Source: Pseudomonadota bacterium (GTDB taxonomy: Bacteria; Pseudomonadota; Alphaproteobacteria; Rhodobacterales; Rhodobacteraceae). From it: a stretch of 64,000 nt of DNA. The stretch spans positions 1-64,000 of the forward strand of contig JAIUPD010000002.1 in assembly GCA_020161615.1 (NCBI GenBank), written 5' to 3'. The position numbers and the translations under genes were made by a program. Under the pieces are notes generated by a model that saw nothing but the letters and a program-made list of their open reading frames with translations, was not told the DNA's origin and made no database searches. This document shows, piece by piece, positions 4,239 through 8,821 of this stretch. Position 1 is the first letter of the stretch, and each line of letters starts with the position of its first letter.

Positions 4239-5588
4239 ATGTCTGCCGCCGCTCAAACCGGCTTCCTCGCGAATGCCCGTTCCGTCCTTGTCCTGGGCCT
4301 GCCGCTGGTCGGCAGCCATGTCGCGCAATTCCTGCTGCATGTGACCGATACGGTCATGCTGGGCTGGTATACCGTCACCGATCTGGCGGCGGGGGCGCTG
4401 GGGGCGACGGTGTTCTTCGTCGTCTTCACGCTGGGCATGGGCTTTGCCCAGGCGGTGATGCCGATGGTGGCGACCGCCGCCGCCGCGGGCGACGATACCG
4501 AGGTGCGGCGCGTCACCCGCATGGGGATCTGGCTGTCGCTGGCCTTTGCCGCCTTGGCGCTGCCGGTCTTCCTGTTCTCGGGCTCGCTGCTGGCGGTGCT
4601 GGGGCAGGAGCCGGATGTGGCGCTGGTGGGCGGCGGGTATCTCTCTATCGTCGGTTTCGGCCTGGCGCCGGCGCTGGTCGCCATGGTGATGAAGAGCTAC
4701 CTCGCCGCGCTGGGGCGGACGCAGGTGGTGCTTTGGGCCACGATTGCCGGGGTTTTCGTCAATATCGGCGTCAACTGGCTGCTGATCTTCGGCAATCTGG
4801 GCTTTCCCGAGATGGGGGCCCGGGGTGCGGCCGTGGCCTCGGTCCTGGTGCAGATCGTCACGCTGGCGGTGCTGATGGTCTATGCGATCAGCCTGCCCTC
4901 GCTGCGGCATTACCAGCTGCTGGTCCGCTTCTGGCGTCCCGATTGGGTGGCGCTGCGGCGGGTCAATGCGCTGGGCCTGCCCATCGGCCTGGCGCTGCTG
5001 GCCGAGACGGGGCTTTTCGCGGCCTCGGCGGTGATGATGGGCTGGCTGGGCAAGAACACGCTGGCCGCGCATTCCATCGCGCTGGAGATCACAGCGCTGT
5101 TCTTCATGGTCCATCTGGGCCTGTCGAACGCGGCGACGGTGATGGTCGGGCGGGCGCGGGGTTTTGGCGACGTGGCGGCGCTGAGGGCCGGGGCGCGGGC
5201 GGCCGTGGTGCTGTCCCTCGGCTTCGCGCTGGCCACCATCGTCGTCTACTGGATCTTTGCCGAGCAGATGGTGGGTCTGTTCCTCAAGCCCGACGATCCC
5301 GAGCGTCCGGCGATCATCCCGCTGGGCGTGACGCTGCTGATGGTGGCGGCGCTCTTTCAGTTCGCGGATTCGGGGCAGGTCATGGCCATGGGTCTGTTGC
5401 GCGGGATTCAGGACACCAAGCAGCCGATGATCATCGCCGCCGTTTCGTACTGGCTGGTGGGCCTGCCCTGCGGCTACGGCCTGGGCTTCCTGGCCGGCTG
5501 GGAAGGGGTCGGCATCTGGCTGGGGCTGGTGCTGGGGCTGACCACCGCGGCGCTGGCGCTGCATGCGCGGTTCTGGCGCGCGGTCTGA
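4239..5588 (+). CDS. MATE family efflux transporter
   Basis: A 449-residue inner-membrane protein with about 12 hydrophobic segments in two homologous halves, as expected for a cation-coupled multidrug and toxin extrusion pump. Typical MATE segments are LPLVGSHVAQFLLHVTDTVM near residue 23, LGMGFAQAVMPMVATAAAAG near 70, and a matching second half from LGLPIGLALLAETGLF near 245. The ATG at 4239 gives the usual short N-terminus. The last 115 bases overlap the 3' end of the oppositely oriented glycosyltransferase gene. Substrate unknown. Confidence 0.92.
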   Translation: MSAAAQTGFLANARSVLVLGLPLVGSHVAQFLLHVTDTVMLGWYTVTDLAAGALGATVFFVVFTLGMGFAQAVMPMVATAAAAGDDTEVRRVTRMGIWLSLAFAALALPVFLFSGSLLAVLGQEPDVALVGGGYLSIVGFGLAPALVAMVMKSYLAALGRTQVVLWATIAGVFVNIGVNWLLIFGNLGFPEMGARGAAVASVLVQIVTLAVLMVYAISLPSLRHYQLLVRFWRPDWVALRRVNALGLPIGLALLAETGLFAASAVMMGWLGKNTLAAHSIALEITALFFMVHLGLSNAATVMVGRARGFGDVAALRAGARAAVVLSLGFALATIVVYWIFAEQMVGLFLKPDDPERPAIIPLGVTLLMVAALFQFADSGQVMAMGLLRGIQDTKQPMIIAAVSYWLVGLPCGYGLGFLAGWEGVGIWLGLVLGLTTAALALHARFWRAV

Positions 5589-6250
5589 GACCGCAGCCAG
5601 AGGATCTGCGCCAGCAATTCGCGCGGGCTCTGACAGCGCAGGATGTCGCGGATCATCGCGGCATCGCCCCAAAGTCCGCGCCAGAGGCCCTGCTTGGCCG
5701 CCTTCCAAGGGCTGGCGACGCCGGGCCAGGCGACGATCCGCACGCGAAGGGCCTGCGCTTTCATCGCCCGGTTCAGAAAGACCTCGAAGCCGAAGCGCGG
5801 CAGCCCGGGCAGGTCCGGTGCCAGCGCCTGCAGCAGCGCGACCGGCAGCACCCGTTCGCCGCTGATGTAATCGACGCCGAGCGCCCGCCACAGCCCCGGC
5901 GCATTGCCCCTGAGCGAGATGGTGGCCTCGGCCGTCCCCTCCAGCACCGGGGTGGCGAGGCGCGTCACATCCTCGGGCGTCAGGCCCACCAGATCCGCGT
6001 CCAGCAGCAGCGCATGCTCGCTCGAGAGCGCGGCGATCCCGGCGGCCAGCGCGGCGGTCTTGCCGCCATTGGCGGGCATCGCCAGCACCTCGGCCCCAAG
6101 GCTGCGCGCCACCTCGGCCGTGCCGTCGGTCGAGCCGTCGTCGATGACCAGCAGCCGGTCGATCAGCGGATGGTCCTGCACGGCGGCCAGCACGCCCGGC
6201 AACCGCGCGGCTTCGTTCCAGGCGGGGATCAGGCAGGTCAGGCGGGTCAT
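5474..6250 (-). CDS. family 2 glycosyltransferase (last gene of the plcP-agt run)
   Basis: A 258-residue GT-A glycosyltransferase with LIPAWNEAARLPGVL at the N-terminus, DDGSTDGTAEVA near residue 35, and the metal-binding LLLDADLVGLTPEDV near 80. No membrane segments are evident. The ATG at 6250 overlaps the dedA stop by 4 nt, so it is coupled to the lipid cassette and is probably a lipid- or polyprenyl-linked sugar transferase (inference). The final 38 or so codons (CSASAAVVSPSTSPSQ onward) run through the MATE gene on the other strand and look low-complexity, so a mutation of an earlier stop may have lengthened the protein. Confidence 0.85.
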   Translation of the reverse strand: MTRLTCLIPAWNEAARLPGVLAAVQDHPLIDRLLVIDDGSTDGTAEVARSLGAEVLAMPANGGKTAALAAGIAALSSEHALLLDADLVGLTPEDVTRLATPVLEGTAEATISLRGNAPGLWRALGVDYISGERVLPVALLQALAPDLPGLPRFGFEVFLNRAMKAQALRVRIVAWPGVASPWKAAKQGLWRGLWGDAAMIRDILRCQSPRELLAQILWLRSQTARQNRACSASAAVVSPSTSPSQMPTPSQPARKPRP

Positions 6251-6819
6251 GCCTCGCTCCGGTGGGCGCGGTGCAACCAGACCAGCAGCAGGATCACCGC
6301 CAGCGCCACCACGGCGACAATGACGCGGTCCATCCAGACCTCGGCATGTTGCCAGCGGTCGCCCAGCCACCAGCCCAGGGCGACCAGAGCGCTGCTCTTG
6401 ATGATCGTGGCGCCCAGATTGACCAGCAGAAAGCGCAGGAAAGGGTAGCGCGTCGCGCCCGCCGCCATCAGCACGGCGAAACCGGCGCCATGGGTCAGCT
6501 TGGCGATGACCAGAAGGCGCGCGCCGTGGTCCTGCATTTCCCGCTTCAGGCGGTCCTGCAGACGGGTGTTGCGGGTCATCCGCGCGCGCAGCCGCGGGGG
6601 CAGCAGCCGCCCGCCACGCCGCCCGACACCATAGAGGATCGCGTCGCCCAAGAGGTCGGCGGCGATCACCACGACCAGCAGTGCGGGCAGATGGACCAGC
6701 CCATGCCCCGCCAGATACCCGCCCAGGATCGAGATGATCGGCCCCTCGAGCAGCGCCAGGGGGGCGAGGATGGCCAGCCCGTATTGGTGGACCAGAGCCA
6801 GAAGTTCGGCGTTATCCAT
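6247..6819 (-). CDS. DedA family membrane protein
   Basis: A 190-residue inner-membrane protein with the DedA/SNARE-associated pattern: LALLEGPIISILGGYLAG near residue 20, the re-entrant-like GDAILYGVGRRGG near 58, and LTHGAGFAVLMAAGATRY near 108. DedA proteins are proton-linked membrane proteins; some flip undecaprenyl phosphate or phospholipids. The ATG at 6819 forms TAATG with the stop of the upstream agt gene, and its own stop overlaps the next ATG by 4 nt. In this context it may move the lipid substrate or product across the membrane (inference). Confidence 0.9.
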   Translation of the reverse strand: MDNAELLALVHQYGLAILAPLALLEGPIISILGGYLAGHGLVHLPALLVVVIAADLLGDAILYGVGRRGGRLLPPRLRARMTRNTRLQDRLKREMQDHGARLLVIAKLTHGAGFAVLMAAGATRYPFLRFLLVNLGATIIKSSALVALGWWLGDRWQHAEVWMDRVIVAVVALAVILLLVWLHRAHRSEA

Positions 6820-7940
6820 TATTCCGCAACAGACATCTGCCCTTTTCTGTCCGGCTCGGGCTTGGTCATCGTCGTGCCGCGCCATTCGAAGCCGCGCCGG
6901 GCGAAGGTGGCGAGCCAGAGCGCGGGCAGCATCAGATCTCGCAGCGGCAGCACGGCGAGGTCGCGCCAGCCGCCGGGCCAGCCGGCGCGGCGGATCAGAT
7001 AGGCCTCGGCCAGATACCAGACCGCGAGATAGGCCAGCGCGAACAGCGGCCCGGCCGCCAGCATCGCCAGCAGGAAGGGGACGAACGCGCCGTTGAGAAA
7101 TTCCAGCGCGAAGAGCCCGGGAAAGGCGTCGCGGCGCACCCGGCTCCAGCGCAATTGCCGGTCCCAGACCTGCCGCAGACTGCGTTTGCCAATAGGCTGG
7201 GCAAAAGGCAGGGGGGCCAGCGTCACCTCCAGCCCCAGCGACCGGATCATGCGGGTGGCGGTCGCATCCTCGGCCATATAGGCGCCGAGCGCGGTGAAGC
7301 CTCCCGCCCGGTCGACCAGCGCCCGGTTGAAGAACATGGTCTTGCCCTGCGCATAGCCGTTGCCCAGGCTGTCCGAGGCATATTGCAGCCGCGCCTGGTT
7401 CGAGTTCAGCACCGCGCATTCCAGATGCCCGCCCCAGCCCTCGGGGCGGATGCCGAGCGGCGGCGAGGAGACAAGGCCGCTGCCCGCCCCCCAGGAGCCG
7501 ACCACGGTGGTCAGATAGTCAGGCGGCAGCAGCAGATTGGCGTCGGTGGTGCAGATCCAGTCCGAGGCGGCGGCATTCCAGCCCTTCCACAGGTTGTTCA
7601 GCTTGGGATTGCCGGTCACCGCGTCGAAACCGATCATCAGGCGCGCGGGAATCTGCGGGTAGCGGGCCATCAGGCGGCGCAGCAGGGGGATGGCGGGGTC
7701 ATCCGCGGCCTGCGCGCAGAAGATCACCTCGTAATCGGGGTAATCCTGGGTGAAAGAGCTTTCCAGCGTCTCGGCGTCGAAGGGATCCAGCCCGCAGACC
7801 GGCCTGAGCAGTGTCACGTGCGGCTGACCGATGCCGCCGGGCAGGCGGCGGGCACTGTTCAGGCGGTGCAGGTAGAAGGCGACGCTCGCCAGATGCACCC
7901 CCAGCAGGGTTGCGGCGCCGATGGCAAGCAGCAGGGACAT
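6819..7940 (-). CDS. agt: GT21-type diacylglycerol/ceramide glycosyltransferase (Agt-like)
   Basis: A 373-residue membrane glycosyltransferase of the ceramide-glucosyltransferase type. An N-terminal anchor (1-25) is followed by VTLLRPVCGLD, the D1 region FCAQAADDP (about 75-82), D2 in CTTDANLLLPPDY (Asp133), D3 in YMAEDATATR (Asp225) and RQLRW (261-265), then C-terminal membrane segments. Rhizobial and roseobacter members add glucose or glucuronate to diacylglycerol and are found with PlcP. The ATG at 7940 makes TGATG with the plcP stop and has GGAGG four bases upstream; a GTG one codon earlier is possible. Ceramide cannot be excluded as acceptor. Confidence 0.82.
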   Translation of the reverse strand: MSLLLAIGAATLLGVHLASVAFYLHRLNSARRLPGGIGQPHVTLLRPVCGLDPFDAETLESSFTQDYPDYEVIFCAQAADDPAIPLLRRLMARYPQIPARLMIGFDAVTGNPKLNNLWKGWNAAASDWICTTDANLLLPPDYLTTVVGSWGAGSGLVSSPPLGIRPEGWGGHLECAVLNSNQARLQYASDSLGNGYAQGKTMFFNRALVDRAGGFTALGAYMAEDATATRMIRSLGLEVTLAPLPFAQPIGKRSLRQVWDRQLRWSRVRRDAFPGLFALEFLNGAFVPFLLAMLAAGPLFALAYLAVWYLAEAYLIRRAGWPGGWRDLAVLPLRDLMLPALWLATFARRGFEWRGTTMTKPEPDRKGQMSVAE

Positions 7941-8746
7941 CACGCCTCCAGGAGGTCGGGGGTCGCGGTCTGCGGGGCACGCGCGGGTTCGGGCGCGCTG
8001 ACCAGCCGAAGGCGGCCGTCGAAAGTCTCCACCAACCCACTTAGGCTATCCACCCAATCGCCGCAATTGGCATATACCAGCCCGTGATCGCTATGCAGGC
8101 CGGCGATATGGAAATGGCCGCAAATCACCCCGTCCACGCCTTGCGCCCGGGCCAGATCCACCAGCCGCCGCTCATGGGTGCGGCCCATGTGCATCAGCGT
8201 GTTCAGCCAGGCCAGCAGCGCCTCGATCGAGCTGCGTGCCTCGGTCCCGCGCGTCGAGCGCGAGAGGCGTTGCAGCCGCCGGTCCACCAGCCTGAGCGCA
8301 TGGTCGATACGGCTGCCGAGGCGGGTGAAGACATGGGCGCGGAAGAGCCGCGCGTCGATCTGGTCGCCGTGGATCACCAGATAGCGGCGCCCGTCGGCGG
8401 CCTCGTGCAGATGGGTATCGACGGCCTCGGCCCGCGGGCGCTTGGCCTCGGGCGCGCGCTCGGGGAAAGGGTCGTGGTTTCCGCGCAGATAGATCAGCCG
8501 CGCGCCCTGCGCCTGCCGGGCGTTCAGGTGGTCGATCACTGCCTGATCGGCGCCGGTCCAATGCGGCAGCAGCGGTTGCCAGAGGTCCAGCACATCGCCG
8601 GCCAGCACATAGGTTTGGGCCGGATGGGCGTGCAGGAAGTCGAGGATCCGTTCGGGCTGGGCCCCCAGCGCGCCCAGATGCAGATCGGAGAGGAAAAGCG
8701 TCCGGCAGGGCTGCGGCAGGGCAAACGGGGCTGAGCGGTCGGGCAT
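7940..8746 (-). CDS. plcP: PlcP-like metallophosphoesterase (phospholipase C-type)
   Basis: A 268-residue calcineurin-like phosphoesterase of the COG2908 group. All metal-site blocks are present: SDLHLG (Asp21, His23), AGDVLDLW (Asp51), RGNHD (90-92), HGDQID (126-128), CGHFH (211-213), and the PlcP-like NCGDWVDS near 228. Sinorhizobium and marine roseobacter PlcP cuts phospholipids to diacylglycerol under phosphate limitation. The alternative family label, UDP-2,3-diacylglucosamine hydrolase (LpxH-like), is less likely because agt follows with a 1-nt overlap and a Pho-box-like sequence lies about 58 nt upstream. Confidence 0.82.
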   Translation of the reverse strand: MPDRSAPFALPQPCRTLFLSDLHLGALGAQPERILDFLHAHPAQTYVLAGDVLDLWQPLLPHWTGADQAVIDHLNARQAQGARLIYLRGNHDPFPERAPEAKRPRAEAVDTHLHEAADGRRYLVIHGDQIDARLFRAHVFTRLGSRIDHALRLVDRRLQRLSRSTRGTEARSSIEALLAWLNTLMHMGRTHERRLVDLARAQGVDGVICGHFHIAGLHSDHGLVYANCGDWVDSLSGLVETFDGRLRLVSAPEPARAPQTATPDLLEA

Positions 8747-8792
8747 TCTGAACCTGCGGTCGCTACGGTCGCGCGCAGATTGTCCCCTGGGG

Positions 8793-8821
8793 GAAACGGC
8801 CGCGTGACGGAATCATGACGC
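8793..8821 (-). promoter_or_regulatory. candidate Pho box upstream of plcP
   Basis: On the minus strand GCGTCATGATTCCGTCAC (8804-8821) fits the CTGTCAT-N4-CTGTCAT layout at 10 of 14 arm positions with exact 11-bp spacing. A weaker third unit, CCGTTTC, follows at the same period (8793-8799). A possible -10, GACAAT, sits at 8779-8784. The site is about 58 nt before the plcP start, where a PhoB-activated promoter would be expected. It was read by eye and is not scored against a matrix. Confidence 0.55.

What the first reader, a model, noticed from the sequence alone, without database searches (positions are those of the whole stretch)
5474..8821. Four-gene plcP-agt-dedA-GT2 cassette behind a Pho-like box: a lipid-remodelling unit with two extra members
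All junctions overlap by 1 or 4 nt (TGATG, TAATG, ATGA), so the four proteins are made together. PlcP and a GT21-type Agt are the known pair that replaces phospholipids with glycolipids under phosphate limitation in rhizobia and marine roseobacters. Here a DedA membrane protein and a second, soluble GT2 are added in the same unit. This suggests a fuller pathway: phospholipid to diacylglycerol, glycosylation, a second sugar or lipid-linked donor, and transbilayer movement. The sequence shows the order and motifs; the added roles are inferred.
Basis: partly seen in the sequence, partly recalled or inferred. Interest (0 to 1): 0.75.

Follow-up and report, generated by a model that had tools for sequence, protein, structure and literature searches.

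The report
Phosphate-saving glycolipid operon, four genes
Four tightly packed genes that travel together in Rhodobacter-like bacteria probably swap phosphate-containing membrane lipids for two-sugar lipids when phosphate is scarce, and they may be the genes behind an unusual glycolipid of Rhodobacter sphaeroides.

Summary
In detail: plcP-like, GT21, DedA/VTT and GT2 genes lie in that order on the minus strand (8746-5474), overlapping by 1, 1 and 4 nt, with a Pho-like repeat 57 nt upstream. The unit is conserved: 13 of 120 family genomes carry plcP, GT21 and GT2 side by side, 12 of them with DedA; 61 of 73 testable named loci, found through GT2, keep all four in order. A Pho-box-spaced motif is enriched upstream across relatives; the window's own site is weak.

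Corrections: published Agt is GT4; GT21 is the Pgt family. The PlcP lies outside the clade of characterised PlcPs (30-32% identity) but is nearer to them than to LpxH (20%); LpxI is present. The GT2 is a core member whose model is closest to GpgS, a retaining glucosyltransferase.

New link: genome G051, which I identify as Rhodobacter sphaeroides, carries the whole cassette. That species makes alpha-Glc(1->4)-beta-Gal-diacylglycerol under phosphate limitation, which GT21 (beta) plus a GpgS-like enzyme (alpha) would explain. My searches found no published gene for it. All enzyme steps are inferred.

The parts
8804..8821 (-). Pho-like box GCGTCAT-GATT-CCGTCAC, 57 nt upstream of the plcP start
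   Evidence: family-level enrichment; weak as a single site
7940..8746 (-). plcP-like calcineurin-type phosphoesterase, 268 aa; motifs SDLHLG at residue 20, GDVLDLW 50, GNHD 89, HGD 126, GHFH 210; outside the clade of characterised PlcPs
6819..7940 (-). GT21 (PF13506) glycosyltransferase, of the Pgt family rather than Agt (GT4) or HpnI; overlaps plcP by 1 nt
6247..6819 (-). DedA/VTT membrane protein, 190 aa; conserved EGP (from residue 25) and K-x-T-H-x-x-G (residues 107-113) where UndP flippases have R-x5-R
5474..6250 (-). GT2-type GT-A glycosyltransferase, 258 aa, fold closest to glucosyl-3-phosphoglycerate synthase; the conserved part ends near residue 225 and the tail overlaps the convergent MATE gene

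Best explanation
The unit is a phosphate-starvation glycolipid operon. When phosphate runs low, PhoB binds the box upstream of plcP (inferred). The PlcP-like enzyme cuts phospholipids to diacylglycerol and a phospho-headgroup (inferred from its relation to PlcP). The GT21 enzyme adds a beta-linked first sugar, most likely galactose, to diacylglycerol (inferred from Pgt). The GT2, a GpgS-like GT-A enzyme, adds the second sugar, most likely alpha-glucose (inferred from fold). The DedA protein moves the neutral glycolipid, or an intermediate, across the inner membrane (inferred). In Cereibacter (Rhodobacter) sphaeroides the product would be the known alpha-Glc(1->4)-beta-Gal-diacylglycerol. What is shown: gene order, conservation, family and predicted fold, the upstream motif, and presence of the cassette in the genome that I identify as C. 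sphaeroides. The confidence below is for the whole scheme; I put Pho-linked glycolipid synthesis alone near 0.8 and the exact alpha-Glc-beta-Gal product near 0.4.
Against: Sequence alone does not separate GpgS from polyprenyl-phosphate enzymes: AglJ and GpgS models both match 55 of 55 members, and the window protein is below both cut-offs. 9 of 73 loci lack plcP beside GT2: 8 have GT21-DedA-GT2, and one MAG (L118) has only DedA-GT2. DedA is missing in 3 of 73 named loci, in G046 and in Pannonibacter, and L140 has only a 44-residue match, so it is not essential. Of six E. coli DedA-family proteins compared, the cassette profile hits DedA, YqjA and YghB, the UndP-flippase kind. The window's single box is weak, and the S. 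meliloti and P. aeruginosa plcP upstreams also score only 10/14 (p 0.15 and 0.11). C. sphaeroides did not appear among the 80 named loci (C. johrii did), a second G051 replicon end found no named match, and the strain used for the GGD work was not checked.
Confidence: 0.5

Rival explanations
1. Lipid-linked donor model: the GT2 makes a polyprenyl-phosphate sugar and the DedA, as a UptA-like flippase, returns or carries polyprenyl phosphate; a separate enzyme uses the donor on the outer side to decorate the GT21 product.
For: The best NCBIfam hit of the DedA is UptA (48.8 bits, cut-off 250); GT2 hits include AglJ, PpgS and ArnC models. Of six E. coli DedA-family proteins, the cassette profile hits DedA, YqjA and YghB; PMC10127716 (section 6) places YghB-type proteins in COG0586, the UndP flippases (for DedA and YqjA the assignment is recalled).
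Against: No outward-facing GT-C enzyme is among the four conserved genes. The second essential arginine of UndP flippases aligns with glycine. The GT2 fold is nearer to GpgS than to ArnC or DPMS.
Confidence: 0.15
2. All-beta model: the GT21 is processive, as M. loti Pgt, and makes the whole sugar chain; the GT2 acts elsewhere, for example on the soluble headgroup phosphate released by PlcP, in the way GpgS glucosylates phosphoglycerate.
For: Pgt makes di- and triglycosyl-DAG by successive transfer (PMC3972451 passages). The closest folds to the GT2, GpgS, MpgS and mannosylglycerate synthase, act on small soluble acceptors (recalled).
Against: Beside the GT2, GT21 is present in 72 of 73 loci and plcP in 64 of 73, so the GT2 is tied to GT21 more than to plcP. 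The solitary GT21 genes of S. fredii, Shinella, M. bullatum, G250 and G189 have no such GT2 in the stretches fetched, and R. sphaeroides GGD carries alpha-glucose.
Confidence: 0.2
3. The phosphoesterase is LpxH and the unit belongs to lipid A synthesis (as the public annotation 'UDP-2,3-diacylglucosamine diphosphatase' says).
For: Annotation of relatives; weak hits to LpxH models.
Against: Hits are 29 bits (cut-off 134) and 22.5 bits (cut-off 190.35); 20% identity to E. coli LpxH against 30-32% to characterised PlcPs; LpxI_C is present over its cut-off in the same genome; only 20 of 120 family genomes match the gene at all.
Confidence: 0.03
4. The GT21 is HpnI and the unit modifies hopanoids.
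For: The HpnI model is the best NCBIfam hit of the window protein (197.9 bits) and is matched by 16 of 16 cassette members.
Against: Below the cut-off of 310 bits; an HpnI-annotated protein sits on a very long branch (4.2 changes per column); plasmid genes annotated hpnI are 25-28% identical; none of the four conserved genes is a hopanoid gene.
Confidence: 0.03

Closest known systems
plcP-agt operons (P. aeruginosa PA3219-PA3218, Pelagibacter, Methylosinus)
   Same: plcP followed by a DAG glycosyltransferase; phospholipid to glycolipid replacement at low phosphate; Pho box reported for P. aeruginosa (PMC8528852, PMC9239053, PMC4796936, passages)
   Different: Agt is GT4, GT-B and retaining; here GT21 plus a GT-A second enzyme and a DedA; the PlcP is outside the characterised clade
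plcP types 3 and 5 of Sebastian et al. (PMC4796936, section 13 read)
   Same: plcP immediately upstream of putative glycosyltransferases, one related to the enzyme of Devers 2011 (Pgt); may well include this cassette
   Different: The text read names neither DedA nor a role for the second enzyme and does not link the unit to R. sphaeroides GGD; the figure and supplement were not available
Pgt of Mesorhizobium loti and Agrobacterium (GT21)
   Same: GT21, acts on DAG, predicted Pho box upstream of A. tumefaciens pgt, phosphate starvation (PMC3972451 and PMC8231724, passages)
   Different: The rhizobial-type GT21 genes examined here stand without GT2 or DedA beside them; M. loti products are all-beta (1->6)
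GpgS / MpgS (GT81-type retaining GT-A enzymes; family number and chemistry recalled)
   Different: 23-28% identity over the aligned part; small soluble acceptor; no evidence yet that the cassette enzyme retains configuration
UptA/DedA (COG0586)
   Same: VTT domain; an invariant Glu in the first re-entrant region, whose exact match to YghB E39 or D51 is ambiguous in the alignment
   Different: Lys in place of the first essential Arg and Gly in place of the second

Membership tests
Characterised PlcP (S. meliloti, P. aeruginosa PA3219) | Metallophosphoesterase motifs | tested here: met
   Motifs aligned in the 17 cassette members shown; PF00149 and PF12850 over cut-off
Characterised PlcP (S. meliloti, P. 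aeruginosa PA3219) | Falls within the clade of characterised enzymes | tested here: not met
   9 canonical rows form one side of a branch at 100/100 without the window protein; it is 30-32% identical to the two references, which are 44% identical to each other. The two references were identified by neighbours and annotation
Characterised PlcP (S. meliloti, P. aeruginosa PA3219) | Hydrolyses phospholipids to DAG | not testable with these tools
   needs an enzyme assay
LpxH | Reaches the curated LpxH model score | tested here: not met
   29 of 134 bits and 22.5 of 190.35 bits
Agt (GT4 DAG glycosyltransferase) | GT4/GT-B family | tested here: not met
   PF13506 GT21 at 163.5 bits, no GT4 family among the Pfam hits; Agt is GT4 (PMC8231724)
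Pgt-type GT21 | GT21 domain | tested here: met
Pgt-type GT21 | Orthology to M. loti or A. tumefaciens Pgt | tested here: inconclusive
   Named Pgt sequences were not in hand; GT21 of S. fredii NGR234 and Shinella are 44% and 41.5% identical and group apart from the cassette genes, 91/97
HpnI | Reaches the HpnI model score | tested here: not met
   197.9 of 310 bits
UptA / COG0586 UndP flippase | VTT domain | tested here: met
   PF09335 52.7 bits, cut-off 33.9
UptA / COG0586 UndP flippase | Two essential arginines at the second re-entrant tip (YghB R130, R136) | tested here: not met
   MAFFT alignment gives Lys107 and Gly113; 65 of 79 cassette DedA carry K[LFIVM]TH
GpgS-like retaining GT-A (GT81) | Closest solved fold | tested here: met
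GpgS-like retaining GT-A (GT81) | Sequence-level assignment | tested here: inconclusive
   AglJ and GpgS models match 55 of 55 alike; the window protein is below both cut-offs
GpgS-like retaining GT-A (GT81) | Retains the anomeric configuration | not testable with these tools
   needs an assay and NMR
Pho regulon | Pho box upstream | tested here: met
   Family-level motif with an 11-bp repeat; single site weak
Pho regulon | PhoB-dependent induction at low phosphate | not testable with these tools
   PhoB gene present

The most novel reading that the evidence does not exclude
The cassette is the pathway for alpha-Glc(1->4)-beta-Gal-diacylglycerol of Rhodobacter sphaeroides. Its GT2 founds a family of retaining GT-A lipid alpha-glucosyltransferases with a GpgS-like fold, and its DedA, which has lost the second phosphate-binding arginine, is a dedicated flippase for a neutral glycolipid.
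Probability: 0.3. Interest if true: 0.75.

Novelty: new variant of a known kind. Interest (0 to 1): 0.6.

Why it matters
It gives four concrete candidate genes for a phosphate-starvation glycolipid reported in 1995, in a genetically tractable bacterium, so gene removals can test it directly. It also offers a DedA protein whose cargo can be guessed from its operon, which bears on the open question of what non-undecaprenyl DedA proteins move. And it points to misleading annotation ('UDP-2,3-diacylglucosamine diphosphatase', 'ceramide glucosyltransferase') in the relatives seen.

Tried and rejected
Rejected: LpxH, HpnI, GT4 Agt. Tried without use: a PstS model to collect Pho boxes did not work in this family (8 of 61 genomes matched, 1 over cut-off, own genome none). 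Foldseek of the DedA model against PDB gave nothing with E<=0.001. No PDB chain matched the PlcP by sequence at E<=0.01. The GT2 model at class level found only the own genome in 240 at E<=1e-30, so co-occurrence rests on the family sample. A search for the genus of G091 held only that one genome. The cassette DNA of G051 has no near match among plasmids. Cassette-type plcP (13 of 120) and canonical plcP (6 of 120) never occur together, but an overlap of only about 0.65 genomes is expected by chance, so it proves nothing. In some searches relatives are not independent; the 21-representative test is the fairest. The 80 named loci were found through GT2, so they cannot test how constant GT2 is. 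Rows dropped: an L037 fragment from the PlcP tree (replaced by L018, the same gene); L021 and L022 from the 79-upstream set because L111 and L086 are the same loci; 7 of 80 named loci set aside for short upstream DNA. The other 123 of 203 relatives were not kept by the tool and not seen. No membrane-helix prediction was run.

Papers: PMC4796936 (passages, section 13), PMC8528852, PMC9239053, PMC8231724, PMC3972451, PMC5897459 and PMC12893004 (passages), PMC10127716 (passages, outline, sections 5, 6, 8). Benning 1995, Devers 2011 and Hoelzl 2005 only as cited in those papers. 'Not found in print' for DedA in this unit rests on searches, and for R. sphaeroides GGD genes on searches (listings, plus the passages named); most subscription journals are not held.
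Full report
What is there. The window belongs to a Pararhodobacter-like genome (closest named GT2: P. aggregans, 91%). On the minus strand four overlapping genes follow each other: a calcineurin-type phosphoesterase (8746-7940), a GT21 glycosyltransferase (7940-6819), a DedA/VTT membrane protein (6819-6247) and a GT2-type glycosyltransferase (6250-5474). Pfam places them as Metallophos, Glyco_transf_21, VTT_dom and Glycos_transf_2. Upstream lie a tRNA-Lys, an OmpR-type response regulator that stays below the PhoB and OmpR cut-offs, and a MarR-type regulator. Downstream is a convergent MATE transporter.

Is it a unit. In 120 genomes of the same family, one per genus and the own genome included, strong GT21 matches occur in 13 (312 bits or more; next 35), cassette-type GT2 in the same 13 (196 bits or more; next 47), cassette-type DedA in 12 of them (77 bits or more; next 40), and the plcP-like gene in all 13. 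Coordinates show them adjacent in 13 of 13, and extracted regions confirm order and junctions. One search lists 20 genomes with any plcP match: these 13, six with a more distant plcP and neither a strong GT21 nor a cassette-type GT2, and one fragment. A scan of named genomes with the GT2 alignment found 203 relatives, of which the best 80 were kept. Of the 73 with 3 kb or more upstream, GT21 is present in 72, DedA in 70 (L140 only a 44-residue match), plcP in 64, and all four in order in 61. Carriers include Cereibacter johrii, Gemmobacter, Salipiger, Thioclava, Pleomorphomonas (Hyphomicrobiales) and a few Enterobacterales (Brenneria, Rahnella, Serratia, Pantoea), which suggests horizontal transfer. 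Named plasmid copies exist in Gemmobacter fulvus, Fuscovulum blasticum and Pannonibacter, the last without DedA. DedA-GT2 junctions overlap or lie within 20 nt in 65 of 66 loci, GT21-DedA in 59 of 62, plcP-GT21 in 36 of 62; starts were chosen by script, so these are approximate.

Regulation. Pooled, 17 plcP upstreams score 9.59 against 8.53 (sd 0.17) in shuffles. In 79 upstreams the mean is 8.80 against 7.91 in 557 control upstreams, which are richer in GC, and a Gibbs sampler without prior found (C/T)GTCA(C/T)-N4-C(C/T)GT, a direct repeat of 11 bp; the sampler was not run on shuffled sequences. With only 21 representatives under 62% identical, the score is 8.86 against a shuffle mean of 7.86 and maximum of 8.43, and the 4-nt spacer beats spacers 0-3 and 5-8. 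PhoB is present (329.6 bits, cut-off 296.2).

The phosphoesterase. It keeps the metallophosphoesterase motifs. Identity is 30% to the S. meliloti PlcP (taken to be SMc00171 because it lies near a homoserine-lactone synthase and a LuxR regulator), 32% to the P. aeruginosa protein taken to be PA3219 (followed by a glycosyltransferase) and 20% to E. coli LpxH. These two PlcPs with seven relatives form one group with support 100/100 that excludes the window protein (the LpxH branch is very long, so the root is unsure). It is best called a PlcP relative outside the characterised clade. LpxI is present elsewhere in the genome.

The GT21. Published Agt is GT4, so this enzyme is not Agt. It is GT21, the family of Pgt. 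HpnI is disfavoured by score (197.9 of 310) and by branch length. Solitary GT21 genes of S. fredii NGR234, Shinella, M. bullatum, G250 and G189 form their own group (91/97) and have no cassette partner in the stretches fetched. The two named Pgt enzymes themselves were not in hand.

The DedA. The model has eight helices (pLDDT 90.1). Aligned with six E. coli DedA-family proteins, YghB R130 meets Lys107 and R136 meets Gly113; EGP is kept in 77 of 79 and K[LFIVM]TH in 65 of 79. PMC10127716 (sections 5, 6, 8) ties those two arginines to phosphate binding by undecaprenyl-phosphate flippases and suggests, for COG1238, that a subfamily lacking such positive residues may move uncharged lipids. By profile the cassette DedA is nonetheless closest to E. 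coli DedA, YqjA and YghB, so a neutral cargo is a guess.

The link to a known lipid. PMC3972451 (passage) states that R. [quoted passage not shown] loti lipids are all beta and (1->6). G051 has the seven replicon lengths that I recall for R. sphaeroides 2.4.1, and the first 3000 bases of one replicon match 2.4.1 plasmid records at 99.9% (the end of a second replicon found no match). It carries the full cassette, four overlapping genes with box-like repeats upstream, one strong GT21 and one PlcP homologue. A beta-transferring GT21 followed by a retaining GpgS-like enzyme would give that lipid. No paper naming genes for it turned up, but most subscription journals are not held.

Verdict. The 'Agt' name is wrong, the PlcP is a relative outside the characterised clade, and the second glycosyltransferase is core. 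Sebastian et al. already described plcP followed by putative glycosyltransferases of the Pgt kind, so the general idea is known; the four-gene form with DedA and the proposed link to R. sphaeroides GGD are what I add.

Noticed in passing
window 5474-5588: The GT2 reading frame runs 115 nt antisense into the 3' end of the convergent MATE gene; the same long C-terminus occurs in L064, L066 and L067, but 63 of 78 GT2 proteins extracted are shorter than 240 aa.
   Followed up: partly
L043 and L044 (Thioclava nitratireducens plasmids): A cassette-type plcP stands on one plasmid without partners in the stretch fetched; the other plasmid has a plcP match in two pieces, GT21 matches split over several frames and a GT2, near transposase genes: probably a decaying copy.
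   Followed up: partly
L100, L120, L133, L137, L138: Enterobacterales carry the genes: Rahnella (L100, L120) and Serratia (L137) have GT21-DedA-GT2, without plcP in L100 and L137 (L120 is too short to tell); Brenneria (L133) has all four; Pantoea (L138) has plcP, GT21 and GT2 but no DedA. Likely horizontal transfer.
   Followed up: partly
L118 4895-6169: A Sungiibacteriota MAG has a DedA-GT2 pair of this type without GT21 or plcP in the locus.
   Followed up: no
L079: A record titled Exiguobacterium profundum MAG carries a Rhodobacteraceae-type cassette, probably a mislabelled or contaminated assembly.
   Followed up: no
L039-L043, L047: Public annotation calls these PlcP-type proteins UDP-2,3-diacylglucosamine diphosphatase, and the GT21 proteins of L040-L042 ceramide glucosyltransferase.
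   Followed up: yes
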